Positions 41,055 through 62,123 of a stretch of 64,000 nucleotides of DNA are shown piece by piece (within the stretch, counting starts at the first letter, position 1; each line of letters starts with the position of its first letter). This DNA comes from Dehalogenimonas sp. 4OHTPN. GTDB taxonomy: Bacteria; Chloroflexota; Dehalococcoidia; Dehalococcoidales; Dehalococcoidaceae. The stretch is taken from contig NZ_CP159307.1 of NCBI RefSeq assembly GCF_040448695.1, positions 620,001 through 684,000 of the forward strand. Reading direction: 5' to 3'. The position numbers were made by a program, and so were the translations under genes. The notes beneath the pieces were generated by a model. It saw only the letters and a program-made list of their open reading frames with translations. It ran no database searches and had not been told where the DNA came from.

Positions 41055-41337
41055 AGAGTTCGGGGTGAACGCTCCCGTAAACTACCGCGAAGACACGACA
41101 AGCGAGGTCTATCTCGAAGGCATGTCGGCGATCGCCCCGCCCGGCATGAGGCCGAAGAGAAGCCGCGGCGAGAAGTTCGAGGAGAAGACTGACTTCAAGA
41201 CCTCTGCCCGGTGGCACCGTAACTTCGATCAGGCCATGTTCGGCGGATCGGATATTGGAGATACCGACTTCGAGAGCCGGCAGATGGGTCTTGAGAGCAA
41301 GCGAAACGGTATAAAGCGGATCCCCGGGAGGCGTTGA
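41032..41337 (+). CDS. Small protein, second paralogue of the block-flanking pair
   Basis: 101 residues with an AAGGAGG site inside the recombinase gene. The first 45 residues align with the protein at 32,703 (shared M-G-x-Y-A, A/V-P-V-x-Y, G-M-x-x-I-A-P-x-G). The C-terminal half is basic and charged (R-S-R-G-E-K, S-K-R-N-G-I-K-R) and absent from the shorter paralogue. No family recognised. The pair marks the two ends of the membrane-protein block. Confidence 0.55.
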   Translation: MGRYANHEEFGVNAPVNYREDTTSEVYLEGMSAIAPPGMRPKRSRGEKFEEKTDFKTSARWHRNFDQAMFGGSDIGDTDFESRQMGLESKRNGIKRIPGRR

Positions 41338-42812
41338 TGGCTGGCCAAGTTAAAATAACCATCAAAGGCAGAGAGTGGATCGCCGCGGTGGCGGCCACTC
41401 CCTGGGAATTGACCAAAGGACTGGGCGGATTGCCCGGACTAGCGGCTGGGACCGGAATGCTCTTTGACCTGGGGTATTCTCGGATTGTTGAAGTGACGAC
41501 GGTGCCAATGCTTTTCCCTTTGGACATCGCCTTTCTCTCCGAGGACTTCACCATAAAAAAGATCTATCGTGACGTCTCGCCTGGGTACCAGGTCAGTGCG
41601 ACTTCGCCAGCCCGTTACTTCATCGAGGTGAATGCCGGCGAGCTGGCAGGAATCGAGGTGGGCGACGAGGCTTCAGTGAGCTGGCTTCCGCTTCAGGAAT
41701 CGTCGCCGGCAGCGCCGGATTGGCCAAGCACGATTGCTTTGCTTGGCGGGTCCCTGGCGGCCGGGATATTTCTGATTAGCTTGTCCCGCCACTTGACCGA
41801 TTCAGCTATCGGCTCATCTGCTTCTGACCTGCAGTCCGCGACCGGGAGCCAGCCGACCAAATGCGAGATCGTCACCCCTCGAAGCTACGACCTGACGAGC
41901 TGGGTCGGCGCTCCAGTGCCGGATTACAGCTTTTCCATCGAGCCCGAGGCTAAAGAGCGCCGCATTGATGAGGTCCTGAAAAAGCTCAAGGACGGCGTCG
42001 ATACAATCCATTCCAGCAGCCACTTCCGGAACTTCCTGCTAACCATGTCGAAGTTCCACGACTATTCTATCGGCAACCTCATCCTCATCGCCTCCCAGAA
42101 TCCAAATGCTACCCGGGTGGCCGGCTTCAACACCTGGAAGGACCTCGGCCGCTTTGTTAGGAAAGGCGAAAAGGGCATTGCCATTCTCGCTCCGTGCCTG
42201 CCGCCGAAGTCGTCTTTGAAAGCCGAACCGGTTGACCAACCCGAAGGCAAGAAAAACGACGAGGAAGAGGAGAAACAGGAATTTCTGAGGCCGATCTACT
42301 TCAAGGTGGTCTATGTCTTCGACCTCAGTCAAACCGAAGGCAAGCCGCTGCCCGAATTCGAGGTTCCAGTACTCACCGGAGAAGCCAACGAAGAACTTTT
42401 CGGCGACATTACGCATCTCGTCAGGAGTGAAGGTGTGCACGTCGGGTTTGACTCGAAGCCGTACCAGGACCCGGCCATCAAGGGCTATTTCTCCGGCAAG
42501 GAAATCTGGGTCAGGCCCGAGGAATCGCGGGCTCAGCAACTGAAGACGCTTATCCACGAGGTGGCCCACTACTATTCAGAAGGGGTTTTCTACATCCCCC
42601 GGCGTGATGCCGAGACCATCGCCGAGAGCGTCGCCTTTGCCGTCGGCGCGCACTTTGGGTTCGATACTGGAACCAGGTCCTTCCCCTACGTCGCCTTCTG
42701 GGCGCAGGACAAGAAGGTCCTTGAGCGAAATCTGGCCTCGATCCGCCAGGTGACCACCCGAATCATCGAAGGCCTCGAATCTCTGGCGAAAAAGCCGGCA
42801 GGGGTGGCTTAG
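41337..42812 (+). CDS. DUF192 - membrane helix - ArdC-like/metallopeptidase fusion
   Basis: 491 residues from ATG 41337 (overlapping the preceding TGA). Residues 1-115 match DUF192 (G-L-G-G-L-P-G-L-A-A-G-T-G-M-L-F-D then P-L-D-I-A-F-L). A membrane helix follows near 140-158. Residues 200-280 match the ArdC-type N-domain (F-H-D-Y-S-I-G-N-L-I-L-I, T-W-K-D-L-G-R-F-V-R-K-G-E-K-G-I), and H-E-V-A-H near 407 gives a zinc-peptidase site. ArdC proteins protect incoming DNA from restriction. Fusion to DUF192 and a membrane helix is unusual. Confidence 0.75.
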   Translation: MAGQVKITIKGREWIAAVAATPWELTKGLGGLPGLAAGTGMLFDLGYSRIVEVTTVPMLFPLDIAFLSEDFTIKKIYRDVSPGYQVSATSPARYFIEVNAGELAGIEVGDEASVSWLPLQESSPAAPDWPSTIALLGGSLAAGIFLISLSRHLTDSAIGSSASDLQSATGSQPTKCEIVTPRSYDLTSWVGAPVPDYSFSIEPEAKERRIDEVLKKLKDGVDTIHSSSHFRNFLLTMSKFHDYSIGNLILIASQNPNATRVAGFNTWKDLGRFVRKGEKGIAILAPCLPPKSSLKAEPVDQPEGKKNDEEEEKQEFLRPIYFKVVYVFDLSQTEGKPLPEFEVPVLTGEANEELFGDITHLVRSEGVHVGFDSKPYQDPAIKGYFSGKEIWVRPEESRAQQLKTLIHEVAHYYSEGVFYIPRRDAETIAESVAFAVGAHFGFDTGTRSFPYVAFWAQDKKVLERNLASIRQVTTRIIEGLESLAKKPAGVA

Positions 42813-42821
42813 ATCACCTCG

Positions 42822-43358
42822 ATGGAAATGGAACTGAGACCGAGCAGGGGTGGCTTCCTCCGGCCGTTTGGCTGTGGCAGGTTTATCCGGGAGTATCTCC
42901 TGGGGAACGGGCCGGAAGGTTCGCCGCGGATCGATCCAGAGAAGGGCGCGCCGCAGGCCGATATCAATTATGAATACAAAGAGGCGCTGGCCAGGGCGAC
43001 CGCCAGGGAGCGGGCGGAGCGGATCATCAGTAAGCAGGTGGTCCGCGGCGTCGATATTACGGAAGAGTACGCCGAGGAGATCTACCAGAAGCAGCTGAGG
43101 AAGGTGTCACGGAAGTTTACTCACATGCGATACCACTCTTTCCTGATGTATTTCGGGGTGCTGAAGAGGTTGGGGTGGGTAGAAGCGACAGAACGATCTG
43201 AGCCTTCAGCCATCCAAGACAATTACCCGCCGGCACCTGAACGGACCTACTACAGGCTGACCGAAGGGGGCATTAGCGCCGGGGATAATCTTTGGGCTAA
43301 TCCACTCTTTACCCTGTACCCAGAAATTGGCCCTAGCCATGTGAGCAGAAATAAATAG
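42822..43358 (+). CDS. Uncharacterised element protein, possible winged-helix
   Basis: 178 residues (start ATG 42822; ATG 42828 is close). A basic N-terminus, a long charged helix (about 50-90: R-A-T-A-R-E-R-A-E-R-I-I-S-K-Q), then a segment R-Y-H-S-F-L-M-Y-F-G-V-L-K-R-L-G-W-V followed by T-Y-Y-R-L-T-E-G-G, which looks like the recognition part and wing of a winged helix. DNA binding is plausible. No family recognised. Confidence 0.5.
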   Translation: MEMELRPSRGGFLRPFGCGRFIREYLLGNGPEGSPRIDPEKGAPQADINYEYKEALARATARERAERIISKQVVRGVDITEEYAEEIYQKQLRKVSRKFTHMRYHSFLMYFGVLKRLGWVEATERSEPSAIQDNYPPAPERTYYRLTEGGISAGDNLWANPLFTLYPEIGPSHVSRNK

Positions 43359-43406
43359 CTGCCAAACCTGCACACGCTGTGGGGAAGGGACCTTAACGCT
43401 ATATAT

Positions 43407-46400
43407 TTACCTCAGTTTGCTAGCAGAGCGAGAGGCTCCACGGATTATTATGGTCACGACACCGATAACTCCTTCTGGGGAAGGATCAATGCCCATTTCC
43501 GTCTCTCCTTTACGGATCATAACATCGTCGATTAAATTTGGGGTGGCCGTAGTTCGATCTGACGTATCGAGAATGCACAGTATACCGACGCTTCGTTCTT
43601 GGCTAATAGTATATTGTGTAACCTGAGGTAAACTCGTACCAGCGAAATGTTCAAGTTTTTCATAGCCCCTGAAGACCTTTAACTCAACAGGAATACCCAA
43701 AGCCAGTACGTCCAAGAATCCTCTTCCCGACTTGATCTCACGAAATACATCGTTACGCCCAATCTTAATGCATAAGTATCTCGTTAAATCCCTCTGGAAT
43801 TCTTTCTCATCAATTTCGGCATTCGTAAAGCTGGGGTCCTTGAGTTGATAGCCCGCATAATTAATTAGACAGGTAATGATTTCCCTCTCCTCAGGGTAAG
43901 GTGATGTCTTAAAATCTGAAACGATGCTATCTAGATTCTTGAAAACCTTATCGACAGCTGAGGCTTCTGCTTTCCCATGAGCTAATAGCCTGGCTTCATC
44001 GCGTATCTTGAATTTCAAATGTGATTGTCCGAAAACTGTACAGGATTCATTGGAACCATCCGGCTTCACCAAAAACACTTGAATCCTGGTATCAATGGGT
44101 TCACTCAATTCCGATTGAGCATTATTAAATTTTAGATGTCCCTTTATTTCATAAGTATTTTCCCCATCAATGAGAGGAACCGATTGTCTAGGGAAAATAT
44201 ATTCTTGTTCAGGAAGTACCGATAATGGAGCTAACCGTAGTTCTTGTTTACAGGTGTTTACGCGAGAGAGTTCAATAACAATTTTAATGTCATGAATACG
44301 ACCCGCTACTATTGTAACAATTTTTGGGATTTCTTGGCCGTCGATTAATACTTTTGCGAATGCGACATTTGCATGGCTATGCAAATGTTTTTCTTCACTC
44401 GAGATTTCTAAATTATTTCGTTTAATAGGTGAATGCCAATGTTCAGGTATTGGCAAATCGTATTGAGGTATAGGCATGGGATCCAAAATCAACTCTTGTA
44501 GGAGCCCGGTCATACCATTAGTTGCGGAAAGGGAATCAACTTTTATTAGATGATCTTTAATCCGGGTCTTAAGTAGCTCACTATCGTTGGTTTGAAGCCC
44601 CTTCAACGCTTCCGACAAGTGACCCTTTATCGCCTCTCGTTTTACAACTTGTTCCGAATCACCATTCAATACGCATTGGTACCATTCAGACAAAAATTTC
44701 GCTGCAATGGCCAATTCTTCATGAAAGTCCAGGACTCTTTGATCATTTGCTTCGAGTTTCAATTCCTTTATTTGTTGAACCACTTTTTCCAAAGCCTGCC
44801 CAGCCTCTGCTGGATCATCGCTCAGATTCAACCATAATAGTCTTATCTGTAGCCAGGTTATATAGAAATATGGGCGTACCTTCTCTTTAGGGATGGATTG
44901 TTCCAATCCAAAAGGTAGATTTCTTTTTGGGTTGGCACGAGACCCCAGTTCCTCAAGGGCTTTTTCCATTGATTCCTTTGCTTTGCTGAGGTGAGAATCC
45001 TTTAGGGCCGTTTCAGCATCGAGAAGTAACGCTAACGCTGTATGTGTTGAACGGTCCCAGGCATAGCGCTCTTCTTCGGGCAACAATGTAACATAGCTTC
45101 TTAACAACTGTGCAGCTTCTTCGAAAATTCCGACATATATCAATAGAGAGGCGAAATGAATAAGATTATATGGTTCCTTCTGACCATGAGCGACCGTCAT
45201 TAGTTTGGTAATCTCAGATCTGATTACTTCTGGAGAAACGCTATATAGTTTTTCAAATTCAGAATCGCTTTTCCCACTATGATAATTTGCGCGACTTGAT
45301 GTAATTTCTAAGTCATAACGAGAGTAATGATCTAATAGTGACAAAAGGTATATGGATTGGTATTCTTTATGTTGAGAGGCCAGTCTTCGCAACGAGCGAA
45401 GCCCGTCTTTGGCAGAGTAGAAGTAAGGATTATTTGCCAAATCAGCAGCTACCTGTGCAGCGTAGGGCAAGAACTGGGTATGACTATTGGCGACATTTAC
45501 CAAGGCCACCGAAGCTTTTTCGATCAAGTGACCTTGAGACTGGTCCTGTTTATACACGAAGTAAATACCCACAAGAGCATTTACTACTTTCCCGGCCGTT
45601 TGGAAATCTTTGACTTGGATCCATTCGAAAGCCTCCGTCGCCACCCGAACAGGGTATAGGTACTCATCGCTCAACAAGGCAGCTAACACTAGGACAACAT
45701 TTTCGGGCAGGTAAGTTCCATCCCTCATAGCAATTTCTGAAAAAGCCTCAGCAGCAGCTCCGCGAACCATGTAAGACTCGTTATCAACAAGGTGCGGAAA
45801 AATAATAGGTATTATCTTTGAGGAAAGTTCAGGGTGCCGATGACCAAAATCGCCAAGAAGTAAAATGAGTTCCCTTTTGAAGGAAGCTGCAATTTTGCTG
45901 CTTGTTCGCGAAATCAAACTCTCGATTTCAGAAAGGGTCCTTTCGGCATCCGTGTTTCCGACGTTTTCTATGATTTCTCGTAAATTCCGTGCAGTACCAC
46001 TTAGGGCGGAAATGTTGGATTGATATTCAATAAACGAAATTTCGTCCCTTTCCTCTTCTCGGACGAGTTTGTGTCTTTTATCTTCAAGATCGCATACGAT
46101 AGCAAGAACACCAAAAAGCCCCGTGATGTGTGCGTAAATAACATCGGGACGGTCTTTAGAAATGATTGATAACATTTCTGACACTTTGAACTTGGTTTGT
46201 TCTGCAAGCCGGTCATTTGCCAGAAGGTTTAGAAGGGGCTCAATCCAGACTTCGGCAAAAGCCAGAGCTTCATCACGTATAAATACATGAAGTAAGGCTT
46301 CTTGAAGTTCTTCGCTAGCCTTGATTATAGCTGCAAGGATCTCCTTTGAAATGACAAGAGGTTCACTCACCATGATCTTCGCGCACGTTTGGCATATTGA

Positions 46401-47456
46401 GGCGTCTACGTACAGATCTTCGTCTTCTCGTTCCCATGATAACGCGCCAAACAGCGGTTCCAAATACCGTTCAAATGAGAAATCAGGCAATGATTGATGT
46501 AAAACCTGAACCGCTGCGCAAGCTGTAGCAACAAGGTGTGGTTGATCAGATCCAAGAAGGCTTATCACGGTGCCTTCAACCAGACTCTGGTCTTGACTTA
46601 TAAATACCTTTAGAGCCTCTTCAACACCATCGCGATGCTTTTTTCTTCCTCGTATGCGAGGGCTTGGGAAAGGATCAACCGGCGAAGAAAGCCAGGAAAC
46701 TGCACTACTTACCAATGTTGGAGTTAATTTGATCTGCCCTTGTTTGAGGCCTTCTGCGATCAACATACAGGCCGAATCAACATTCCTACCCTCATCGAGA
46801 GCGATATTTGCCCCTTTGATAGCAATTGAGACGATGTTCTGATTGTACTGTCCAGCTAAACGTAGAATCTCCAGTACGCCACCTCCCACCTGCTGGTCGA
46901 GGACCGCGCCAATAAGAACCGCGGCTAATTTTTCCGATATTATTTGGGGTTTATGCTTTGTACCCTGAAGGAGCTTGTCCACCGCTTCGCATTTGTGTTC
47001 CTCGATGATGAGTAGCCCGGCTAATTCACGTGCCGTTGCGTCGCTCTCGATATCCGACTCAAGTACGGCCTTTGGATTAATCGGGATCAATCCTTTCAGT
47101 AGTTGGTTAGCATTTCCTACTTCGTTTTTCCTCTTTGCGCGCTCTTGAATTTTCGAGATAACACCCTCTCCGTAATTGTCAGAACTCACGAGGACGTGAT
47201 GTGGACAATCAACGCAGTTACCTTCAATGAAGATAGATGCCGTGTCCTTGATCGTCATCCCTGAATAACCATGATGGAAACGGCAACCAATACGTTTTGC
47301 CCCAATCGGGAGATCGACCATTTGACCAACAAGACTAACGTTTTCTTGATATATTACCAGGTGCTTACACCAGTTCTTTACACGTTGTTGGGGCACATCC
47401 TCGAGTTCCAACCGGATAATCTCGTCAATTTGTTTCTGCAAATTCTTACGAACCAT
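43407..47456 (-). CDS. HEAT-repeat scaffold with C-terminal PD-(D/E)XK-like nuclease domain
   Basis: 1,349 residues from ATG 47456, chosen because a TATAAT box ends 9 bases before it; the frame opens at 47483, upstream of that box. Residues 40-90 hold a Cys/His cluster (C-R-F-H-H, G-N-C-V-D-C-P-H-H). Residues about 150-1000 are tandem helical repeats of HEAT/ARM/TPR type. Residues 1010-1170 are beta-rich. The C-terminus has F-L-D-V-L-A near 1244 and V-E-L-K-V near 1252, the D...ExK core of restriction-type nucleases, then Q-V-T-Q-Y. Lower GC than its neighbours and on the opposite strand, it looks like acquired cargo, probably defensive. No named system recognised. Confidence 0.6.
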   Translation of the reverse strand: MVRKNLQKQIDEIIRLELEDVPQQRVKNWCKHLVIYQENVSLVGQMVDLPIGAKRIGCRFHHGYSGMTIKDTASIFIEGNCVDCPHHVLVSSDNYGEGVISKIQERAKRKNEVGNANQLLKGLIPINPKAVLESDIESDATARELAGLLIIEEHKCEAVDKLLQGTKHKPQIISEKLAAVLIGAVLDQQVGGGVLEILRLAGQYNQNIVSIAIKGANIALDEGRNVDSACMLIAEGLKQGQIKLTPTLVSSAVSWLSSPVDPFPSPRIRGRKKHRDGVEEALKVFISQDQSLVEGTVISLLGSDQPHLVATACAAVQVLHQSLPDFSFERYLEPLFGALSWEREDEDLYVDASICQTCAKIMVSEPLVISKEILAAIIKASEELQEALLHVFIRDEALAFAEVWIEPLLNLLANDRLAEQTKFKVSEMLSIISKDRPDVIYAHITGLFGVLAIVCDLEDKRHKLVREEERDEISFIEYQSNISALSGTARNLREIIENVGNTDAERTLSEIESLISRTSSKIAASFKRELILLLGDFGHRHPELSSKIIPIIFPHLVDNESYMVRGAAAEAFSEIAMRDGTYLPENVVLVLAALLSDEYLYPVRVATEAFEWIQVKDFQTAGKVVNALVGIYFVYKQDQSQGHLIEKASVALVNVANSHTQFLPYAAQVAADLANNPYFYSAKDGLRSLRRLASQHKEYQSIYLLSLLDHYSRYDLEITSSRANYHSGKSDSEFEKLYSVSPEVIRSEITKLMTVAHGQKEPYNLIHFASLLIYVGIFEEAAQLLRSYVTLLPEEERYAWDRSTHTALALLLDAETALKDSHLSKAKESMEKALEELGSRANPKRNLPFGLEQSIPKEKVRPYFYITWLQIRLLWLNLSDDPAEAGQALEKVVQQIKELKLEANDQRVLDFHEELAIAAKFLSEWYQCVLNGDSEQVVKREAIKGHLSEALKGLQTNDSELLKTRIKDHLIKVDSLSATNGMTGLLQELILDPMPIPQYDLPIPEHWHSPIKRNNLEISSEEKHLHSHANVAFAKVLIDGQEIPKIVTIVAGRIHDIKIVIELSRVNTCKQELRLAPLSVLPEQEYIFPRQSVPLIDGENTYEIKGHLKFNNAQSELSEPIDTRIQVFLVKPDGSNESCTVFGQSHLKFKIRDEARLLAHGKAEASAVDKVFKNLDSIVSDFKTSPYPEEREIITCLINYAGYQLKDPSFTNAEIDEKEFQRDLTRYLCIKIGRNDVFREIKSGRGFLDVLALGIPVELKVFRGYEKLEHFAGTSLPQVTQYTISQERSVGILCILDTSDRTTATPNLIDDVMIRKGETEMGIDPSPEGVIGVVTIIIRGASRSASKLR

Positions 47457-47465
47457 TGTGGCGTC

Positions 47466-47495
47466 ATTATAACACTGACCCAAGGGGGGTGATAA
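47466..47495 (-). promoter_or_regulatory. Near-leaderless promoter of the HEAT/nuclease gene
   Basis: Minus strand: TTATCA (47490-47495), 18-base spacer, TATAAT (47466-47471) with TG one base upstream (extended -10). The predicted leader before ATG 47456 is about 3 nt. Confidence 0.5.
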
Positions 47496-47624
47496 ACGTG
47501 CTAGTTCTTCGGAGTGTTCAAAGTGACTTTTTGTTTGACAATGAAGCTGGAAAAACGCGCAAACGTACCTTAAAAACCGAATAGAAAAACCTTGACCTGA
47601 ACGCTTGCCCGAAAGGGGGAAAGC

Positions 47625-48464
47625 GTGAGTTCAAGCGTAGCAGTAACAGGAGAACACAGCCGGCCTGGGGGCTTCTGTAGCCGGTGTCACCGGGTTTGGG
47701 TGCTAAAAGAAAGGCAAGGCGTTTGCCGATGGTGCGGAAAGGTCGCCACCTGTCAGACCACTTCAACAAGCGCCTTGCGTGGCTTCAAGTCTAGTCGAAG
47801 CTCAAGCTCAAAGCAAGCCGACACCAACGGGAACGGCTATGACAATCTTTCCGGCAACTGGTTTACCTTCTATACCATCGCCTCGAAGTTCAGCCACAAA
47901 GCCAAGCCGGATGAACGGGATGACCTTCTCCACGACATCATCATCACCCTCGCCGATGTCGAAAGGAATAACGGACATCATCAGTTTACCGAAGCGGCTA
48001 TGTATCGTATCGCCAGCCGCGCCCAAGCTCTCTACTGGCGGAAGCGATACCGGATGGACAACGGCCTGACCTGCGGGGATTGTAGCAAGGCACAACGGCG
48101 GAAGTGTAAAGAGAACTGGCTGTTTGCGGCCTGTCCCAAAGCGGTAAAGCTCGAAAGCCTGAATAAACCGGTCATAGACGAGGAAGGCAACACCACCGAA
48201 CTCGGCGATCTGATTGCCGACGACAGGGCTTTGGACCTCGATGCCTGGCTGGATGCCAATACATTCTTGCTACAATGCCCCGACAGGCTAATCGCCATCG
48301 CCGAAAAGCGGCGGGACGGGTTAGCCCTCGACAATGCCGAAATGATTTACCTTTGCCGCTTTCGGAAACGGGAACAAAAAAGCCTGTTTTCCGGTGAAAG
48401 GTTTTCGCCCGTTTTCGCAACTAATACAGTGGGAGCTTCGGCTATGCCAGCGGTTTGCGGGTAG
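47625..48464 (+). CDS. Zinc-finger, sigma-factor-like protein
   Basis: 279 residues, GTG start with an AAAGGGGGAA site. An N-terminal four-Cys cluster (C-S-R-C-H ... C-R-W-C-G, 18-37) is followed by a Ser-rich linker. Then comes a helical region with K-A-K-P-D-E-R-D-D-L-L-H-D-I-I-I-T-L-A-D-V (about 93-113), resembling sigma-70 region 2 or small phage sigma-like proteins. A second Cys cluster (C-G-D-C ... C-K) follows near 150. It may steer RNA polymerase to late genes; alternatively a primase-like or DNA-binding protein. Confidence 0.55.
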   Translation: MSSSVAVTGEHSRPGGFCSRCHRVWVLKERQGVCRWCGKVATCQTTSTSALRGFKSSRSSSSKQADTNGNGYDNLSGNWFTFYTIASKFSHKAKPDERDDLLHDIIITLADVERNNGHHQFTEAAMYRIASRAQALYWRKRYRMDNGLTCGDCSKAQRRKCKENWLFAACPKAVKLESLNKPVIDEEGNTTELGDLIADDRALDLDAWLDANTFLLQCPDRLIAIAEKRRDGLALDNAEMIYLCRFRKREQKSLFSGERFSPVFATNTVGASAMPAVCG

Positions 48465-48491: not shown

Positions 48492-49832
48492 ATGGAGTTG
48501 CCCACCTATCGGATAGCAAGAGGGGGTCGGACAATCGAACAACTGAATATCGAGGGCAAGCGTTCAGGTCAGGGCTTTTTAGCGCACAAGGCGGTACTGG
48601 TAAGCGCCTTATCAAGAGCACTCGCCGAAAGGGCGATGCTTCTTGACCTCACCATCGGGCGGAAAGGCTTTCTCACCTACCTTAAGTCTTTAGGCGGGTC
48701 TAACATCGTGAAAATAGTCCCGTCTAACGGCGATGCCAGCGTATCGCGGGTCGCCGGAAAATGCCTCAAGGTGGTCTGCGGAGCCAACACCAGCTACCTC
48801 GAACACATGGCCTGGGTCGGCGAAAAGACACCCCTTACCCTGTGCGACATCAGGGTCAGCCCCTCAAACTCGGTTAGCCCCAACCTCGGCGCGACGGAGC
48901 TTTCGGACGCCCTGTCAAGGGTACTGCCGTTCACCTCGGATGAGACGACACGCCCCATTCTCCAGTGCGTTCTCTTTCGAGTGAAAGACGGCAAGCTAAC
49001 CCTTGTCAGTGCTGACGGCTACCGCCTCGCCGTCCTAACACTTCCATTCGACGGGTATGAGGGACAGGTGCTCGTTAGCCGCGATGACCTCAAGGGCGTC
49101 ACCGGAGCTTTGAAACGGGCGCGGCGGGTAAGACTGTCGCTGGACAAGAACGGCGACAAAGACCCGATGAGCCTAGTGCTCGACACGGAGCTAATCCGTT
49201 ACACGTGGCGAGGATGCGGCGGGAACTTCCCGGACTACGAGAAACTCATACCCGCCGAAACAAACACCCGCGCCAGCTTCGACACCAACGAAGCGATGAA
49301 GGCGGTTAGCTCATTAAAGGTCGTCGCCAACGTCAAGGCTTGGGCCGTTGACCTCGCCATCGGGGACGGCAAGGTAATCGTTAGTTCCACCGATGACAAG
49401 GGGACGGCGGAGATACCCGCCGACACCACCGGCGAGCCTATCAAGATTAGGCTTGACGGCGGATACCTCGCCGAAGCGTTAAGGGCTTGCGGCGGCATGG
49501 TTGAGCTAAGGGTCAAGGACGCAAGGTCGCCGATGCTTTTTGCCGCGCCGGATTATGAGCTGGTGGTCATGCCGATGCTTCTGCCGGAAGCCAAGAAGCC
49601 GGCGGACACGGCCAAGACCGCCGAGCCGGACAAGGGCGAAGCACCGACACCCGCCGAACCTGCCGAGCCGAAGGTCGAGACAGCCGAGGCAGTCGCGCCG
49701 GAGCCGACAGCCGAGCCAGTACCCGCCGAGGAAGTCGCCCAAGCCGTAGCCGAGGCCGAGGCTATCACGAAGGCCGAGAAACCGAAGGCCAAGAAGCACA
49801 ATAAGGCGAAAGAACCAGTAGCCGTAGCCTGA
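48492..49832 (+). CDS. DnaN-like sliding clamp with N- and C-terminal extensions
   Basis: 446 residues. Residues about 133-375 match beta-clamp domains: T-T-R-P-I-L-Q-C-V-L-F, L-V-S-A-D-G-Y-R-L-A-V (the diagnostic D-G-Y/H-R-L-A motif), then G-N-F-P-D-Y-E-K-L-I-P and the terminal V-V-M-P-M-L-L-P, which parallels the host clamp's final M-P-M-R-L. There are about two clamp domains instead of three, an N-terminal 130-residue region of unknown fold, and a 75-residue Ala/Glu/Pro/Lys tail. An element-encoded processivity factor, suggesting partly autonomous replication. Confidence 0.75.
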   Translation: MELPTYRIARGGRTIEQLNIEGKRSGQGFLAHKAVLVSALSRALAERAMLLDLTIGRKGFLTYLKSLGGSNIVKIVPSNGDASVSRVAGKCLKVVCGANTSYLEHMAWVGEKTPLTLCDIRVSPSNSVSPNLGATELSDALSRVLPFTSDETTRPILQCVLFRVKDGKLTLVSADGYRLAVLTLPFDGYEGQVLVSRDDLKGVTGALKRARRVRLSLDKNGDKDPMSLVLDTELIRYTWRGCGGNFPDYEKLIPAETNTRASFDTNEAMKAVSSLKVVANVKAWAVDLAIGDGKVIVSSTDDKGTAEIPADTTGEPIKIRLDGGYLAEALRACGGMVELRVKDARSPMLFAAPDYELVVMPMLLPEAKKPADTAKTAEPDKGEAPTPAEPAEPKVETAEAVAPEPTAEPVPAEEVAQAVAEAEAITKAEKPKAKKHNKAKEPVAVA

Positions 49833-51484: not shown

Positions 51485-54400
51485 CTAGTTCCATGATCGA
51501 TTCAATTTCAATAGCAGGTCGTTAATATTTGCCTTAACCAACTCGAATCGCTTTTTTAGGCCCTCCATCGTTAGATCCTGGAGTTTAACCCAAGTTGGGT
51601 CGGAGGGGCTTGGCGCTATTTCAGATAAATCAATGAGGCGCATTAGTGGGGTAATAGGATAGTTGAAACGTTTGAGGTTTCTCACGGCTTCTTTGGTGAA
51701 CCCTGCTAGGTTTGGACCTTGGATGACAGAACCGGGAAATCTGGACAAGGCTATATCAACATAGGTTGCCTCAAGCAGTAGCTGCTTTCCCTTTTCGACC
51801 AAAGCTGACCGGGCTTCTTCCATCTGTGCTTCATTATGCTGTTGGACTGTCTTTTTGAACTCTTCAATTCTGCTGGAGAAATCTGAATCAACCTGAGTCA
51901 GTTGATCGGGCGACAGCGAAACCTTGGGTTTTTCCAGGCAGGTGACAAGGTCCGAAAGCGTTAAGATCGGCCTTGGAACGCCTTCATTGCATGAATAATA
52001 AACGCAGAGGGCCGGATTCTCCGAGCTTTTCCTGACCATCCAACTTGGAAAGTCTTGTGATCTAAGAGTGTCAACTGCTTCGAGTAACCCATGGAACAAG
52101 GGCTCGCCATAGCTTATCAATTTCAATGAGTTGGGATTTCGATCGAAAAGTTCCGGGTTGAAAGTTGAAGGAACCGACACTCCTTCATCCCAAACCCGAT
52201 ACGTTCCAATGCGAGAGGCGTCGGAGCTAATGAGTCCCTTGGGTTCCAATGCCTGTAAAAGACTGCATTCGATTTCAGCCTGGGTAACCGGAGGCATAGA
52301 CTTGGGGGCCTGAATGACGTCTTCGGGAAGATATTTATCCAAACTGAGGCTATTCACCTGCCGCTCATCAATATCGCGCTTGATGGCCTCTATCTCGGAA
52401 GTCAAAAGCAATTGTCTGGCTCCGCCTGTCTCCATGGCTGCCGTTTGGATGACTCTCGCGACTCGAGCGAGAATTGGCTGAAGATCACCTACTACGGTCT
52501 CAAACCAATTGATGCGCCCTTCGAGGGCCCTATAAATCTGCGCTTCCACTGTATTTTCATAGAAGTAATTATGTATCCAGACCTCGTCATATTTCTGCCC
52601 GATGCGGTCAATGCGGCCGATACGTTGTTCAACTCTCATCGGGTTCCACGGCATATCGTAGTTGATCATCATACCGCAAGACTGCAGGTTCAGACCCTCC
52701 GATAAGGCGTCGGTGCCAACCAGGATTTTGATCTTTTCCGCCAAGAAGTCTTTTTTGATCGTATCTTTCGTCGTGCCCTTCCAGGCGGTGCCGTCCCACA
52801 CTTCCCCGCCGCGCCCAGAATAACAAGCCACGGCTTGCCCGTAGACCGCACGAAGGTGCTCTCGGAGATAGTCCATGGTATCGGTATACAAAGTAAAGAT
52901 AATGATCGTCTCTCGTTTCCGAAAAAGGTCGTCCAGTTGGCGCAATAACTGCTCAACTTTGGAGTCAGCTGCCAATGGATGAATCTGCCCCATGAAATCT
53001 TCGATATATGCTATCTCGTCGTGGTAGATCGAGCGCTCTGGTGTTGCTAACTCCTCCAGGACATCGCTGTCCAGGTCGTCGTCTTCCACATCTTCGTCTG
53101 TGAGGCCGCCGTTAGGCAAAGCCTCAGGTTCTCCCCGCAGGAATTTTAGACGCCGAGTGAGGCTTTGACTCATTGCATAAAAGCTTGATGTTAACCTTCT
53201 ACGGTAGACGGTCATGATAAAGCCCAGGCCTTTGCGCTCAGCCTCGTACCTTTTGTAGAAGTGCGAAATGTATTCCTCGATCTTAAGGTAAAGCAGCATT
53301 TCTTCATCGCGCATCTTGATCCAATTCAGGTGCGGACGGCGGGTGGGGACCTTCTTGCCTCCCAACAGGCCTCGCTTTTGGTACTCCCGGAGGAGAGCCC
53401 GCGTATTGCGCATAATAAACCGGGCAAGCGGGGTGTGGCGGCGCACGAATTCTGAAAGAACGGCTTTGCCGACTGGATTCAGTTGAGAGATTTCGGCAAC
53501 CGCTTTTGAAGAATAGGGCAAATTCTTAATTGTCTCCCAGGTTACCAAGCCGATTCGCCTCAGTGCTACTGAGTCAAAGGCCGGATCTATTGCTCCGCCA
53601 TGGTCTAAATAATCCCGAACCATCTTGAGCAGAAACGGCCAGTCAGCCTCAGAGCCCTGCCTTATCTCATCGAAAAAGCGTGTAAAATTTGCATCCGAGG
53701 CGCCCCAGCGTCCCCCAAGCCCGAGCACCGCAAGGAGGTCCCAGACTTCCCGGGGATCCACCTGCATCGGAGTGGCAGTGAGCAGGATAAGGCCGCGGGT
53801 TCTTCTGGCCAACCCAGCCTCGTCCGGCTTCTCCTGCGGTCCCATCAACAGCGAAAGCAGTCGGTTGCGCCGGTATTGTCCTGACAAGAAATCCTTACGC
53901 CGAGCGTGGTGGGCCTCATCTACAAGGATTAGATCCCAAGGCTCGGCTTGGAAGAGCTCCGACATGCGGTCCCGCCGTTTGGCCAGCTGGCTGGAGGTAA
54001 TGGTCACTGGGAACGCATTCCAGGGATTGGCGCTCTCCGCAGGTAATTCCCTTCTGAAATAGTCTCTAAAAACCGAGCCGTCATAGAGCGGTACGTTGAG
54101 TAGGAATTTCTCATAAAGCTCTTCTTGCCATTGGCGGCAGACGCTTTTTGGCGCCAGGATCAGGCAGCGACGGGCTCGCCCTGAGAGCGAGAGTTCTTTT
54201 AGGGCGCCACCACCCTCCAGCGTCTTTCCAAGCCCGACCTCATCACAGAGCATATATCTCGCCGGGAAAGTACCGACCAGCCTATCGACCACCTTTGATT
54301 GGTGCGGCCAGAGGTTTACTGTAGTGGCGACGCGACCGAGTAAATGCCCATTGGGAAATAGCGGTGCATCCCTGAGGAACTGGAATAGTATCCTCTCTCT

Positions 54401-55177
54401 GGTGCTTTTAGGAAGCGACGGACCCTCTTCTGGCTTTCCAGGTTCACCGGTTTTTTCGAGCGGGTCTTTCGAGGGGGCTTCTCGCGGACTGTAGGTCAAC
54501 AGGCGCGCTCTAACTGCTTCGGGAATAGCCAAACTGATCCAGCCGTCTTCCTGGTTGTTCCACAGGCGCTCGAAGTACCGTGTGTGAGTGGTGATGTAAG
54601 GTTGTAAACCCGGTTTCCAGGAGCAATACACCGAAAACAGCTCGTAGTTGTGGCGCCAGGCTTGCTCGCTTTCGTTGATACTCCCAACGAAGACGACCTG
54701 GTTACCCTGGCTGTCGGTAAAGATCCCGGTCTTGGGGTGATAGTAGTCATGTGATGCCGAAGCCGGCAGCGGATGTCCGTCCTTTCCCCGGGGTAGCACG
54801 ACCCGGACTTCAAGGGTGCCCTGATCTATCATCCATGCCAATGCAGCAAGCCTTTCACAGGTGATGGCGTCTGCCATGACATCAATACTCGAATTCATGC
54901 GTTCGGCCACCACCGCCGCCAGTTCAGTGCCGCCGTGAAGAGCGGCCACATCGTCTTCAGATAGCTGAGCCCCTACCAAAAGCCTCATCTGACCGCCGGT
55001 GGCGATGAGATGGGCTACGCCGACCGCCGCTACCGCAAGTGCTGACGAGGAGAAAAACCCAGCTGTGCGGTCGTACTTTATTGACCGCGAAAGAGCCGGC
55101 ACATAAAACTCATCTACCCGGTTATCGCGGGGTCCGTAAGCCACCTGAAAATCGTAGTCGGATAATTGCTGAGGCAT
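51485..55177 (-). CDS. PLD-domain SNF2-family helicase, defence cassette gene 4
   Basis: 1,230 residues. The N-terminal phospholipase D-like nuclease domain has H-P-K-T-G-I-F-T-D near 143-151 (HxK plus Asp). The SF2/SNF2 motor has C-D-E-V-G-L-G-K-T near 310-318, V-D-E-A-H-H-A-R near 415, T-A-T-P near 463 and Q-R-I-G-R-I-D-R-I-G-Q motif VI near 860. The last 350 residues are helical and unassigned. It translocates on DNA and probably cuts it with the PLD domain. It resembles helicases of DISARM- and BREX-type loci. Seven bases separate it from the methylase gene. Confidence 0.85.
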   Translation of the reverse strand: MPQQLSDYDFQVAYGPRDNRVDEFYVPALSRSIKYDRTAGFFSSSALAVAAVGVAHLIATGGQMRLLVGAQLSEDDVAALHGGTELAAVVAERMNSSIDVMADAITCERLAALAWMIDQGTLEVRVVLPRGKDGHPLPASASHDYYHPKTGIFTDSQGNQVVFVGSINESEQAWRHNYELFSVYCSWKPGLQPYITTHTRYFERLWNNQEDGWISLAIPEAVRARLLTYSPREAPSKDPLEKTGEPGKPEEGPSLPKSTRERILFQFLRDAPLFPNGHLLGRVATTVNLWPHQSKVVDRLVGTFPARYMLCDEVGLGKTLEGGGALKELSLSGRARRCLILAPKSVCRQWQEELYEKFLLNVPLYDGSVFRDYFRRELPAESANPWNAFPVTITSSQLAKRRDRMSELFQAEPWDLILVDEAHHARRKDFLSGQYRRNRLLSLLMGPQEKPDEAGLARRTRGLILLTATPMQVDPREVWDLLAVLGLGGRWGASDANFTRFFDEIRQGSEADWPFLLKMVRDYLDHGGAIDPAFDSVALRRIGLVTWETIKNLPYSSKAVAEISQLNPVGKAVLSEFVRRHTPLARFIMRNTRALLREYQKRGLLGGKKVPTRRPHLNWIKMRDEEMLLYLKIEEYISHFYKRYEAERKGLGFIMTVYRRRLTSSFYAMSQSLTRRLKFLRGEPEALPNGGLTDEDVEDDDLDSDVLEELATPERSIYHDEIAYIEDFMGQIHPLAADSKVEQLLRQLDDLFRKRETIIIFTLYTDTMDYLREHLRAVYGQAVACYSGRGGEVWDGTAWKGTTKDTIKKDFLAEKIKILVGTDALSEGLNLQSCGMMINYDMPWNPMRVEQRIGRIDRIGQKYDEVWIHNYFYENTVEAQIYRALEGRINWFETVVGDLQPILARVARVIQTAAMETGGARQLLLTSEIEAIKRDIDERQVNSLSLDKYLPEDVIQAPKSMPPVTQAEIECSLLQALEPKGLISSDASRIGTYRVWDEGVSVPSTFNPELFDRNPNSLKLISYGEPLFHGLLEAVDTLRSQDFPSWMVRKSSENPALCVYYSCNEGVPRPILTLSDLVTCLEKPKVSLSPDQLTQVDSDFSSRIEEFKKTVQQHNEAQMEEARSALVEKGKQLLLEATYVDIALSRFPGSVIQGPNLAGFTKEAVRNLKRFNYPITPLMRLIDLSEIAPSPSDPTWVKLQDLTMEGLKKRFELVKANINDLLLKLNRSWN

Positions 55178-55184
55178 GCCTTTT

Positions 55185-58091
55185 CTATTCCTCTAGCTCT
55201 TCTTCCTCTTCTTCAGCGGTTTCGTCTTCGACAAATCCTGTAAGAGTGCCCTGGGTCGCTACAACTTTGGGTTCTTCCTCGATAGGCACCGATAGATCGT
55301 CGAAGAAGCTCAACCTTAGATCATCCAAAGTTTTGGATTCGGGGCGGACGAATCCATTGTCCTTATTCTTGGTCCGCGGTATGGCATTGATCATCGCCTG
55401 TAACACCGCCTTGAAAGTCTGGTCCTGCATGAGTCCTGTCCGCTTCAAAAAAGCCTGGCATGCCAGGCCCCCGTCTTCCTGATAAATGAGCATAGCGGTG
55501 TGGGCGGCATCCAGCCACGAGCCGAAAGAATTCAACTCCTCGTCAACGACACCCTTCTTTCTCCGGGCAAGCGGTTGCTGGATAATTACATTTTTGCCTT
55601 TCTTGGTGGCGATCCTCTTTTCGGCAATGACTTCGCGTTCAATATCAAGCCCGAGAACGATGGCAAGCTTGCGGGCCTCGTCTGCCGGGAACTCCTCAGC
55701 ATTGAAGGCATCCCAGGCCATGAGATACCAATCGGTTGCCTGATCGAATTGAACCGTGCGCCCAAGCAGTAGCTCTTGTTTGCGTAAAGCGACGACTTCC
55801 TCCCTTGCCAGGTCAAGGGCTACCTCTGGCCTGATGACCATCGGCTCACCTTTGCTATCTGTTTCTGATGAGAGAACCGGCCAATTTTGCGAAAGAACGG
55901 AAAGAACCGGCCCAAAGGTGCTGATATACAAATCCACACCGGAGATACCCAGCGCATGAAATTCATGAGCCTTATTTCTCGCTGTTTGGCGAATGGCGCC
56001 TTTAATATCATCCCACCAGGTCGGTTCCGCCCTTTCAAGGCGCTTCCGGCAAACTAGAAGGATTGTACTGGAGGCGGAATTCTTTTTTACCTGGTGCAGG
56101 CTGTGCTCACTCTCCGTATGTACTGGCCATGAGGTCTGAATGGAAAAACCGGCGCTGATCAGAGAAACTGCCAGATTGTTCCAGGCTTCAACCTCCTTGT
56201 GGGTGAACATTACCGTCAACACCCCGTCCGGATGCAGGATGCGGTGCATTTCTCTAAAACAGCTAGCCATTTTACGCTCGTAATCCGTATCAGCGAGAGC
56301 CTTCTTATTCCGTGCGCCTTCAAAACGTGCCTGGTTGGCTACTGCTTCATCGTCCTTGTTGGTAAGGTCATCTCTGAACCAATTTGGAAAGAGTTCTCCT
56401 ACAGTACGCTTCTGCCACACGTAGAAAAAATCTGAGCATTCAGCGTACATGACATTCGCTGAGTACGGAGGATCAACACATACCGCATTGACCGAACCGG
56501 TTTCGATATTATTTAAGTCGTTTGCATTGCCCTTTGTCACACTTAAAGACCCTCGAAGGTCACGTTTGTGAAACAATGTCTTCGTTTCGACTAATCGGGA
56601 AATTCCTTCGAATGCGTCTATGATTTGGCCGACAACCCAAGGATATAGATTATCAGCTGCGTCAAATTCACCGTGACTCCACTTAAAGGCGAAATCATGT
56701 CGTTCAAAAGAATTGACCATGACTCCTCTACCGCTGTGGAAACGCGATCTTCTTGAGTTGTAATCGGCTGATTTGTCGATCGCCAAAGCTAGATAGGTCC
56801 TTATAGCTTTGGCTTTTTCCTGACCACATTCGTGCTCAATCTCAATGCCCAGATTTTTGAGTTCTTCGACCGCGACGATCATGGATAACAGTTGACGGGG
56901 AGAAAAGCACTCAAACCACCGGACTATACCATAGTTTATCGAACGATCTGCGGGTCCAGCATACCGTTCTTCCATTGGTACTAGATTTGCTTTTTTCCAT
57001 TCTGGCATTCGCATCAACAGTTCTTTTTCTGCTTCATCTACTGCCATCAGGTCCTCGTTGATCGGTGCTCGAAATTTCAGCCCGCCTTCGGTCTTCGTCC
57101 CAACGGCATAAAGCTGCTGTCCCATACGGCCAGCCTGAGCTTCAGCCTTGATGTAGTCTCCATCTATCGGATCTCCGGTCCATGGGCTACGGCCGATACC
57201 TTGCTTGACGGTTCCCTTATCGGGGCTTAGGGCAATAGCGGCCTTTCCTTCTTCTATTCTAAACTGGCACACTTCCCGGTCTGGATCAGCCACTAGTCTG
57301 GCAGCAACAGGATTTGAACCTTTCTGGAGCCACCAATTTGGAGATAGGGGTACCGGTTTACCGGTTACCGGGCAAGATACCGTTCTAGCCCAAATATAAG
57401 CATGTATTGACTCATTGGGTTGCTTTGGGAAATATTTCGCTAGTTTTTCATTTACACGCTGGCAAAAAATATTGCCCCATTTCTTGATATCTTCGGATAG
57501 TTGTGCTCCGAAACGAGATGGATATTCGAGCGTAGCCCTGAGAATTACCGAGGCAACCGGATTTAGTTCGTTCGCATAAGTCTCGAAGCCAAATCTTAAT
57601 GATTCGAATGGGATCGACCCGCCCCCTGCCATCGGATCTATCACAGATAATGAATTCTTGCCCCAGGTATGTCCTAGCAGTTCTTTGACAATTGCTGCAT
57701 CTTCCGGGGATGGATTACGAGTAAAAGCTCGCTTGTATCCATACGGATCAGCTTGAAGCTTGACTCCTTTGTCTTTAGCCCAATCGATTAGCTTCCTGGC
57801 GGACACCGGATCGCCGAAGATACCGATTAACTGCAGAAACCACTCATGGTAGCTCTTCTCGGTTGGGAATTTCTCAAGTAGATGTTTTGGCCAATCACTG
57901 TTCCATTGAGGAAGCAAACTGCCGAGAACGGCGGCTCGGCTGATCATCAAAGGGCGCCTGGCCCACCAGACATGAAGAAAATAGAGCGGAGGCAGGGCTG
58001 ATGACGCTCCGCGCTCTCTCATGCACTCAGCACCGATCTTATCAATCGGCAACCATTGTTCTGCTAAGACTTTCGGTCTATTCTCAGGCAT
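55185..58091 (-). CDS. DUF1156-type DNA methyltransferase, defence cassette gene 3
   Basis: 968 residues. The N-terminal DUF1156 region carries L-H-V-W-W-A-R-R-P-L near 40-49. The SAM-binding motif I is D-P-M-A-G-G-G near 152-158 and the catalytic motif IV is D-P-P-Y near 539-542 (C-V-D-P-P-Y-S-A-N-V), an adenine- or N4-cytosine-type amino-methyltransferase. The C-terminus ends in a highly acidic stretch (E-E-E-E-E-L-E-E). In related loci this enzyme marks self DNA. It lies between the small DUF gene and the helicase. Confidence 0.88.
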   Translation of the reverse strand: MPENRPKVLAEQWLPIDKIGAECMRERGASSALPPLYFLHVWWARRPLMISRAAVLGSLLPQWNSDWPKHLLEKFPTEKSYHEWFLQLIGIFGDPVSARKLIDWAKDKGVKLQADPYGYKRAFTRNPSPEDAAIVKELLGHTWGKNSLSVIDPMAGGGSIPFESLRFGFETYANELNPVASVILRATLEYPSRFGAQLSEDIKKWGNIFCQRVNEKLAKYFPKQPNESIHAYIWARTVSCPVTGKPVPLSPNWWLQKGSNPVAARLVADPDREVCQFRIEEGKAAIALSPDKGTVKQGIGRSPWTGDPIDGDYIKAEAQAGRMGQQLYAVGTKTEGGLKFRAPINEDLMAVDEAEKELLMRMPEWKKANLVPMEERYAGPADRSINYGIVRWFECFSPRQLLSMIVAVEELKNLGIEIEHECGQEKAKAIRTYLALAIDKSADYNSRRSRFHSGRGVMVNSFERHDFAFKWSHGEFDAADNLYPWVVGQIIDAFEGISRLVETKTLFHKRDLRGSLSVTKGNANDLNNIETGSVNAVCVDPPYSANVMYAECSDFFYVWQKRTVGELFPNWFRDDLTNKDDEAVANQARFEGARNKKALADTDYERKMASCFREMHRILHPDGVLTVMFTHKEVEAWNNLAVSLISAGFSIQTSWPVHTESEHSLHQVKKNSASSTILLVCRKRLERAEPTWWDDIKGAIRQTARNKAHEFHALGISGVDLYISTFGPVLSVLSQNWPVLSSETDSKGEPMVIRPEVALDLAREEVVALRKQELLLGRTVQFDQATDWYLMAWDAFNAEEFPADEARKLAIVLGLDIEREVIAEKRIATKKGKNVIIQQPLARRKKGVVDEELNSFGSWLDAAHTAMLIYQEDGGLACQAFLKRTGLMQDQTFKAVLQAMINAIPRTKNKDNGFVRPESKTLDDLRLSFFDDLSVPIEEEPKVVATQGTLTGFVEDETAEEEEEELEE

Positions 58092-58097
58092 TGATCT

Positions 58098-58535
58098 TTA
58101 TTCCTCTGCCATCAGGATACGGGCTGCGCGGCAAGCACGCCCGCGCCCGGCTCCCCTGGAGCATTTTGCAAACCAATAGTAAGCTTCCTCTGTCTCCATC
58201 TGCCGTATGGAACAAGAAACGCTCTCTATGCGGGACGGCTTCTTTAAGGGTTTAATAGCTAGGAACAGTAACCCTAAGCGGACGCCCTGCTCCTCGTCCA
58301 ATTCGAAGGGTTCTTCGCGGCTGGCGCGGAGATCATTAGCACGGTATCCATTCTTTTTGATGGTGTCCAGCACCTGATCCAGCACGGCTTTGAGTGGCAT
58401 CCCCTGCACCGACACTACCAGAGGCATCCCGCTATCGCCTTTGTCACCGGCTAGTTTGCGCTGGCGTAGTTCGAGCGCATATTCGGCATCGGACAGAGGC
58501 AACACTTTTAACTCGAATGATTTCCCGTCTTTCAC
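58098..58535 (-). CDS. Small conserved defence-cassette protein (DUF7680-like)
   Basis: 145 residues, overlapping the stop of the DUF499 gene by 4 bases. N-terminal beta hairpins (F-E-L-K-V-L-P-L), then G-M-P-L-K-A-V-L-D-Q-V-L-D-T-I-K-K-N-G-Y, a G-V-R-L-G-L-L-F-L-A-I-K-P-L strand, E-E-A-Y-Y-W-F-A-K-C and an Arg-rich end. I associate this pattern with DUF7680, a partner of DUF499/DUF1156 genes; the name is from memory. Probably an adaptor between ATPase and methylase. Confidence 0.65.
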   Translation of the reverse strand: MKDGKSFELKVLPLSDAEYALELRQRKLAGDKGDSGMPLVVSVQGMPLKAVLDQVLDTIKKNGYRANDLRASREEPFELDEEQGVRLGLLFLAIKPLKKPSRIESVSCSIRQMETEEAYYWFAKCSRGAGRGRACRAARILMAEE

Positions 58536-61500: not shown

Positions 61501-61552
61501 CACCTTTAAGTACGTCTTCTCTGGGCTTACAGTTCTCGAATACTGTTTTCAT
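58532..61552 (-). CDS. DUF499 AAA+/P-loop ATPase, defence cassette gene 1
   Basis: 1,006 residues with a TAGGAGA site. Walker A is T-S-F-G-G-G-K-T-H near 82-90, the DUF499 signature, and Walker B-like L-I-L-L-D-E-F-A-A-F near 191-200. A Cys-rich segment C-P-I-C-A-C-P-V-D-A-C-I-C (about 830-842) suggests a zinc site. The family includes BrxC/PglY-like ATPases of BREX systems. It is the first gene of the operon and probably the energy-dependent core that senses or remodels incoming DNA. Confidence 0.85.
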   Translation of the reverse strand: MKTVFENCKPREDVLKGELKEERFAAHLRDVIDAKADPIYREPGVFFEYTYPTEGLRQLLREALGRLAGTKTASAPIIRLETSFGGGKTHNLIALYHTARVGNAGADMVSRFVDTSIVPAEPIDLIAGIVGSDLDPTNGLDHGDCVTYTVWGEIAYQLGGLAGYRLMQKSDETKVAPGVQVFEKLVGDRPALILLDEFAAFLRKAEGVPVGESNLAEQSSAFLLTLLSFAAKMQRVVVVITLADVKDAFGAETERVQAVMAEAGKVTARQERIITPTSETEIAPIVTHRLFQNVDSSEGAVTARAYSDYIREQLDRRVELPESSGRAEYSEEIQKNYPFSPELIVTLNRKTSTIPDFQRTRGALRLLALVVRKLWQNRPVDAWLIHPHHIDLSDDDVLNELTSRLKRPQYRQVAEADIVSLEKGSLAHAALVDRPFIDAGRPDYARRFGTTVFLHSIVQGVASGVDHQGALLAVLEPGDDPGNLQKAIESLLDSAWFLDYDGRRYRFKTEPSLNKLIADEAENAGRLKPKEELNHRIKNVWRKGIFQPIYFPSEAAEVDDDSGIPKLVVIHYDAAKTTALESAPPELVIKIAEHAGTQEGFRVFRNNVLFLVADTDQIERMIEVARRHFAIARIVNDADRMREFAEEQRKKLKGMLEETELQYRIAITRAYRYMYYPSADALDKNGRLAKETLPAQDQGNVDQDQSQVLLRVLRQLDKALTADDKPLNAAYLKSKAWPAGKEYVSTEEIRRAFGQRLGLKILIDINQLKASIRDGCKKTGVWVYQAPGEQEVYGLPSPVPSIVFDESAILYTPEGAKAIGLPVKGEQKPICPICACPVDACICAGEVREPEKETKVITFEGAPGQAFQAVLDQARDQKVQRLYRLGIKVEGTGPDAANDSRLIGLAIPQIGKGNFKIEQVMNCEFGAETFSLSFKGSWEKYKQVKTLTDAFGKLADKVHARTRLEIEFDSGLDLDNPQLEVIRDIFSTLGFGKIVVSAEKMNKETG

Positions 61553-62110: not shown

Positions 62111-62123
62111 AAGGAGGGAAGAG

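What the first reader, a model, noticed from the sequence alone, without database searches (positions are those of the whole stretch)
43407..47456. HEAT-repeat giant protein ending in a PD-(D/E)XK-like nuclease: candidate stand-alone defence gene
About 1,350 residues: Cys/His cluster, long helical-repeat array, beta region, then a D...E-L-K nuclease core with Q-V-T-Q-Y. It has lower GC than its flanks, opposite orientation, its own extended -10 promoter, and sits as cargo in a mobile element. A sensor scaffold fused to a nuclease fits abortive-infection logic. I know no named system with this order.
Basis: partly seen in the sequence, partly recalled or inferred. Interest (0 to 1): 0.75.

Follow-up and report, generated by a model that had tools for sequence, protein, structure and literature searches.

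The report
HEAT-repeat nuclease, likely anti-phage defence
A large bacterial protein with a zinc-binding tip, a long helical scaffold and a DNA-cutting end sits alone in a swappable cargo slot of a mobile element; relatives lie beside known anti-phage systems and share their nuclease with the Lamassu system, so it is probably a previously unnamed sensor-plus-nuclease defence.

Summary
Confirmed: one intact 1349-aa gene, 43407-47456(-). It has a C/H cluster, an all-helical HEAT solenoid, a beta-sandwich, and a C-terminal PD-(D/E)XK core of the QxxxY type (E1217, Q1221, D1249, E1258, K1260, Q1278, Y1282); these nuclease residues are invariant in 12 aligned relatives down to about 20% identity. 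The host looks like Dehalogenimonas (inference).

The gene is the only one in a cargo slot of a recurrent mobile element. Other copies of the slot carry different cargo: several PADLOC-positive defence genes, but also reductive-dehalogenase blocks. Relatives occur in Chloroflexota, Planctomycetota, Latescibacterota and one IMG/VR phage-like contig. Outside Dehalococcoidia they are two overlapping genes: Zn+HEAT (~850 aa) and solenoid+sandwich+nuclease (~500 aa). In Latescibacterota the pair lies inside a type I RM locus next to DarG. The same nuclease ends LmuA in a complete Lamassu operon, and in Pelosinus is fused to a TPR array.

Best reading: an autoinhibited nuclease released when the Zn/HEAT part senses infection. 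Defence is supported by context only; trigger and substrate are unknown. The whole protein has no match in PADLOC (2023), NCBIfam or PHROGs and none above threshold in Pfam. New variant of a known kind.

The parts
43407..47456 (-). Whole gene, 1349 aa, ATG start, single fused protein
   Evidence: full-length homologues
47127..47456 (-). Residues 1-110: N-terminal Cys/His domain (W29, C30, C58, C81, C84, H87 near-invariant in the family); probable zinc site
   Evidence: alignments; positions; model confidence low here (pLDDT about 45-66)
44943..47039 (-). Residues 140-838: HEAT-type alpha solenoid
   Evidence: AlphaFold model all-helical, Foldseek hits karyopherins/CAND1; Pfam HEAT_2 below cut-off
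44457..44924 (-). Residues 845-1000: further helices; the stretch where the protein is split into two overlapping genes in other phyla
44001..44366 (-). Residues 1031-1152: beta-sandwich, Ig-like
   Evidence: AlphaFold strands; structural matches to many Ig-like/beta-sandwich domains, Integrator INTS4 first
43557..43829 (-). Residues 1210-1300: PD-(D/E)XK nuclease core, E1217/Q1221, D1249, E1258-x-K1260, Q1278-xxx-Y1282
   Evidence: invariant across 12 sequences including Lamassu LmuA; helix-strand order in the model; PADLOC LmuA/OloB matches of relatives
47466..47495 (-). Promoter-like site TTATCA-18-TATAAT with extended -10 (TG), 9 nt before the ATG; suggests a leaderless or nearly leaderless transcript (inference)
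   Evidence: sequence
43353..47482 (.). Cargo in the slot of a recurrent mobile element: this gene only
   Evidence: homology of flanks to 13 other slot stretches stops at 43333-43352 and starts at 47479-47500
42822..43358 (+). Left slot neighbour, 178-aa backbone gene
   Evidence: recurs in the congeners' slots
47625..48464 (+). Right slot neighbour, 279-aa backbone gene; followed by a DNA polymerase III beta-like gene at 48492-49832

Best explanation
The gene encodes a fused, single-protein version of a two-component anti-mobile-element defence. The N-terminal Cys/His domain and HEAT solenoid act as sensor and scaffold; the C-terminal RecB-type (QxxxY) PD-(D/E)XK domain is the effector nuclease. 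In the resting cell the nuclease is held inactive against the solenoid and beta-sandwich; binding of a phage or plasmid product or DNA structure by the N-terminal part releases it to cut DNA, either the invader's or indiscriminately (abortive infection). Shown: the architecture, strict conservation of the catalytic residues, one gene as sole cargo of a mobile slot, fused and split forms, the shared nuclease with Lamassu LmuA, relatives in defence islands. Inferred: defence function, autoinhibition and release, DNA as substrate, outcome for the cell.
For: Nuclease residues E, Q, D, ExK, QxxxY invariant in 12 sequences incl. two LmuA-type proteins and modelled in PD-(D/E)XK order. Nuclease subunits of relatives match PADLOC LmuA (best 1.2e-21, 8 of 9 members) and OloB; in L045 that nuclease ends the LmuA of a complete Lamassu operon with LmuB 2e-115 and LmuC 8e-43. 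Same nuclease on a different repeat scaffold (TPR) in Pelosinus, as expected if the scaffold is an exchangeable sensor. L025: the pair lies between type I HsdM/OLD-like ATPase/HsdS and DarG/HsdR. L024: cargo between phage genes. Window: sole cargo of a slot whose other occupants include SIR2, NDT and LmuB-like ATPase genes, with Hma and PD-Lambda-2 4-15 kb away. Patchy: 5 of 400 Chloroflexota genomes, none of the 7 congeners.
Against: No functional data. The same slot also holds reductive-dehalogenase and metabolic cargo, so it is not defence-specific. Contexts of the Stieleria and some Chloroflexota relatives show no defence neighbour among the proteins tested. The window protein itself had no PADLOC hit at E 0.01; the LmuA link runs through relatives. 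Fold searches did not return a PD-(D/E)XK structure, as the beta-sandwich filled the lists.
Confidence: 0.66

Rival explanations
1. It serves the mobile element itself, not the host: an element-borne nuclease that excludes or destroys rival elements or processes the element's own DNA during transfer.
For: Sole cargo of an element slot, carried in a phage-like contig in L024, next to an element-borne beta-clamp-like gene. Defence genes carried by elements often act in inter-element conflict (general knowledge).
Against: It is accessory: the same slot in other elements lacks it, so it is not needed for transfer. Chromosomal loci in Latescibacterota sit in an RM island.
Confidence: 0.17
2. It is a DNA repair or recombination nuclease in which the HEAT/beta-sandwich part recruits it to DNA or partner proteins; the link to defence is coincidental.
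For: RecB-type QxxxY nucleases are common in repair, and HEAT solenoids are common scaffolds (general knowledge).
Against: Rare and patchy distribution, mobile contexts, kinship of the nuclease to LmuA.
Confidence: 0.08
3. It is an accessory subunit of the neighbouring Hma system (51485-61552).
For: Hma genes lie about 4 kb away on the same element side.
Against: Backbone genes separate them and the gene alone fills a slot with conserved edges; no homologue seen here has Hma next to it in the neighbours tested.
Confidence: 0.04
4. It is an RNA- or modified-DNA-targeting restriction factor with sequence or modification specificity rather than an infection sensor.
For: In L025 the pair sits inside a type I RM locus; in L033 a weak methyltransferase hit lies upstream.
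Against: No methyltransferase or target-recognition domain is conserved beside the family; in the window the gene stands alone.
Confidence: 0.1

Closest known systems
Lamassu (LmuA-LmuC-LmuB), subtype with a C-terminal PD-(D/E)XK nuclease in LmuA (PADLOC PDLC03853)
   Same: Homologous C-terminal nuclease domain with identical catalytic residues (hhalign probability 97%, E 5e-11; PADLOC E down to 1.2e-21)
   Different: No LmuB SMC-like ATPase and no LmuC beside the gene; the sensor part is a Zn/HEAT solenoid instead
Olokun OloB (PADLOC PDLC03926)
   Same: Weaker match of the nuclease region (best 2e-9, 7 of 9 members)
   Different: No OloA partner identified; match limited to about 120-150 residues
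Pelosinus TPR-nuclease (L028, 573 aa, found here, unnamed)
   Same: Nuclease 52% identical to the G216 subunit over about 190 residues; N-terminal Cys cluster plus helical repeats
   Different: TPR array instead of HEAT; no beta-sandwich; single short gene
Eukaryotic Integrator subunits INTS4/INTS7 (structure only)
   Same: HEAT repeats followed by a beta-sandwich; top Foldseek hits of the C-terminal half, INTS4 also top by VIA-align (Z 11.8)
   Different: No nuclease; rmsd about 16 A and TM about 0.2; a shared arrangement, not evidence of kinship

Membership tests
PD-(D/E)XK nuclease superfamily (QxxxY branch) | Catalytic D...ExK with preceding acidic residue, QxxxY in the following helix | tested here: met
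   E1217, D1249, E1258, K1260, Q1278, Y1282 invariant in 12 sequences
PD-(D/E)XK nuclease superfamily (QxxxY branch) | alpha-beta-beta-beta-alpha-beta core | tested here: met
   Model of the C-terminal half: H373-388, E393-399, E402-408, E411-418, H424-441, E446-453; pLDDT about 72-89 over these blocks
PD-(D/E)XK nuclease superfamily (QxxxY branch) | Structural match of the isolated domain to a solved member | tested here: inconclusive
HEAT-repeat proteins | Tandem antiparallel helix pairs forming a solenoid | tested here: met
   Pfam HEAT_2 only below its cut-off
Lamassu | LmuA with homologous effector nuclease | tested here: met
Lamassu | LmuB SMC-like ATPase encoded in the same operon | tested here: not met
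   Gene is alone in its slot; window neighbours and the two-gene loci show no LmuB
Hma (helicase-methylase-ATPase) | Gene is one of the Hma subunits | tested here: not met
   No PADLOC match for the protein; Hma subunits are the separate genes 51485-61552
Anti-phage defence system (any) | Protects cells from phage | not testable with these tools
   Needs an experiment

The most novel reading that the evidence does not exclude
A distinct, unnamed defence family in which a Zn/HEAT solenoid senses infection directly and releases a RecB-type nuclease without any ATPase or nucleotide messenger: two genes in most phyla, fused into a self-sufficient 1349-aa protein in Dehalococcoidia, built by pairing the Lamassu-type nuclease with a new sensor.
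Probability: 0.5. Interest if true: 0.68.

Novelty: new variant of a known kind. Interest (0 to 1): 0.57.

Why it matters
If true, it adds a compact one-gene defence to the catalogue and shows one effector nuclease being plugged into at least three sensor types: an SMC-like complex (Lamassu), a TPR array, and a Zn/HEAT solenoid. Conserved catalytic residues, and the natural fused and split forms, make the question of what the HEAT part recognises directly testable. It also shows that slots in mobile elements of organohalide-respiring bacteria, known for moving dehalogenase genes, carry defence cargo as well.

Tried and rejected
Whole-protein searches in Pfam, PADLOC, NCBIfam, PHROGs and PDB sequences gave only sub-threshold HEAT matches; the weak RE_MjaI and APH hits are chance. 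The full-length protein had no match in the phage or plasmid collections; relatives' subunits had none in phages and one weak Streptomyces plasmid hit. Viral scans with the full protein, the HEAT half or the N-terminal domain found nothing; only the nuclease core worked. G134 (E 3e-4, helical part only) was judged chance. INTS4/INTS7 similarity was rejected as kinship (low TM, high rmsd). Foldseek and VIA-align returned no PD-(D/E)XK structure among listed rows, which says nothing either way. An accessory role to Hma was rejected because the slot edges isolate the gene. 'Orphan Lamassu' was rejected because LmuB is absent. Repeats around the gene are short chance pairs and do not mark its ends. 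Papers combining HEAT repeats with Lamassu or PDDEXK phage defence: none in the held library, which lacks most subscription papers and bioRxiv.

Full report
Observation. The gene runs from ATG 47456 to the stop at 43407 on the minus strand and encodes 1349 residues. The own genome is one contig of 1.75 Mb with one copy. None of seven congeners has it. Neighbouring slot copies carry reductive-dehalogenase-like genes with twin-arginine signals, so the host is probably Dehalogenimonas; this is inference. GC is 43.4% with 39.9% at third positions, against 58.6% and 55.5% in the two flanks. A promoter-like TTATCA-18-TATAAT with an extended -10 ends 9 nt before the ATG.

Relatives. A 56% identical fused homologue was found in another Chloroflexota genome, and more distant ones in three more, making 5 of 400 genomes with the window's own. 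A scan of 84,980 genomes with the nuclease core found ten loci in Latescibacterota, Planctomycetota (Rhodopirellula, Stieleria), Chloroflexota and Pelosinus, using one strict peptide pattern, so the count is a lower bound. In 294 genomes of the Stieleria phylum only one full member appeared, besides a nuclease-only match. One IMG/VR contig carries it. Except in Dehalococcoidia the protein is split: an 840-870-aa Zn/HEAT gene and a 490-510-aa gene, the second starting in the last bases of the first in every complete pair but one; in G307 the overlap as called is longer. The summed length, about 1350 aa, matches the fused protein, and both halves align end to end.

Domains. The N-terminal cluster W29-C30, C58, C81, C84, H87 is near-invariant across the family. 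The model of residues 1-844 is an all-helical solenoid (mean pLDDT 75.8) resembling karyopherins and CAND1; the Cys domain itself is modelled poorly. Residues 845-1349 (mean pLDDT 70) give helices, a beta-sandwich and then the order helix, three strands, helix, strand expected for PD-(D/E)XK. E1217 and Q1221, D1249, E1258, K1260, Q1278 and Y1282 are invariant in all 12 aligned proteins, though some pairs share only about 20% identity overall.

The nuclease links to known defence. Relatives' nuclease subunits match the PADLOC family LmuA (8 of 9 members, best E 1.2e-21) and OloB (7 of 9). A search with the LmuA model found a Chloroflexota locus, L045, with LmuA (1e-51), LmuB (2e-115) and LmuC (8e-43): a complete Lamassu operon in which the nuclease is C-terminal. 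Profile comparison joins this nuclease with ours (probability 97.1%, E 5e-11). A review describes LmuA as the variable effector usually with its enzymatic domain at the N-terminus, and LmuB as the likely sensor (PMC10586767). In Pelosinus the same nuclease ends a 573-aa protein with an N-terminal Cys cluster and TPRs. So one effector is joined to different sensors.

Context. The mobile element recurs in the genus. Similarity of flanks to the window stops at 43333-43352 on the left (most copies) and starts at 47479-47500 on the right (all copies), so the gene with about 30-50 bp on each side is the whole cargo. Other occupants of the slot are a SIR2 protein (4e-34), an NDT_II-A-like protein (2.5e-8), two LmuB-like ATPase proteins (6e-34, 8e-27), a five-gene set with an MBL-type protein (two proteins tested, no PADLOC hit), a DUF429/DinD-like set, a transport/metabolic set, and large reductive-dehalogenase blocks (the annotations without E-values are by eye). 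About 4 kb to the right lies a Hma locus and then a PD-Lambda-2_B gene. In Latescibacterota the pair lies in a type I RM locus: HsdM, pAgo-like, OLD-like ATPase, HsdS, the pair, a 212-aa gene, DarG, further genes, HsdR, pAgo-like. In L024 it lies between a phage-type methyltransferase gene near a terminase and a primase-like gene (by eye).

Interpretation. These facts fit a defence in which the Zn/HEAT part senses and the nuclease kills or cuts. Gene-sized cargo implies that the fused protein can act alone, apart from host factors. Autoinhibition is inferred from the general need to keep such nucleases silent, and from the beta-sandwich and solenoid lying next to the nuclease in one chain; no structure shows it. 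The trigger and the substrate (phage or host DNA) are unknown.

Limits. No experiment. PADLOC is of 2023; newer catalogues could hold this family under a name unknown to me. The nuclease was not folded alone. The slot carries non-defence cargo too. The window protein reaches LmuA only through relatives; its 56% homologue does so at 1.7e-8.

Noticed in passing
51485-61552 (-): Hma-type locus: PLD/SNF2 helicase (HmaA-like), DUF1156 methylase (HmaB-like), 145-aa DUF7680 protein and DUF499 ATPase (HmaC); scores are far below NCBIfam equivalog cut-offs, so a divergent type.
   Followed up: partly
62091-63329 (+): Strong PADLOC PD-Lambda-2_B match (2.4e-148), a peptidase/repressor-like protein next to the Hma locus.
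   Followed up: no
41334-42812 (+): Protein joining DUF192 with the N-terminal domain of the anti-restriction factor ArdC: possible anti-defence gene in the element backbone.
   Followed up: no
48492-49832 (+): DNA polymerase III beta-clamp-like gene in the element backbone, recurring in slot copies.
   Followed up: no
19889-21910 (-): Large serine recombinase (Resolvase/Recombinase/Zn ribbon), possible integrase of the element; ends of the element not mapped.
   Followed up: no
L058 316-5727 and L064 308-5639: Same slot in two congeners holds an uncharacterised five-gene cargo with a ~750-aa metallo-beta-lactamase-like protein; the two proteins tested gave no PADLOC hit: candidate new system.
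   Followed up: partly
L062/L063, L068/L069, L070/L071: The same slot also carries 30-40 kb blocks with reductive dehalogenases, cobamide and radical-SAM-like genes, so defence and respiration cargo share one insertion site.
   Followed up: partly
L028 8678-10399: Pelosinus 573-aa protein: Cys cluster + TPR + the same nuclease; a sister one-gene architecture.
   Followed up: partly
L040 9566-19730 (-): Planctomycetota operon with a 673-aa protein ending in this nuclease, a 684-aa and a 245-aa protein laid out as in Lamassu, plus an extra 1777-aa gene.
   Followed up: partly
L025 1285-2385 and 18390-20267: Two separate pAgo/SIR2-Ago-like matches flank the type I RM island that contains the pair.
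   Followed up: no
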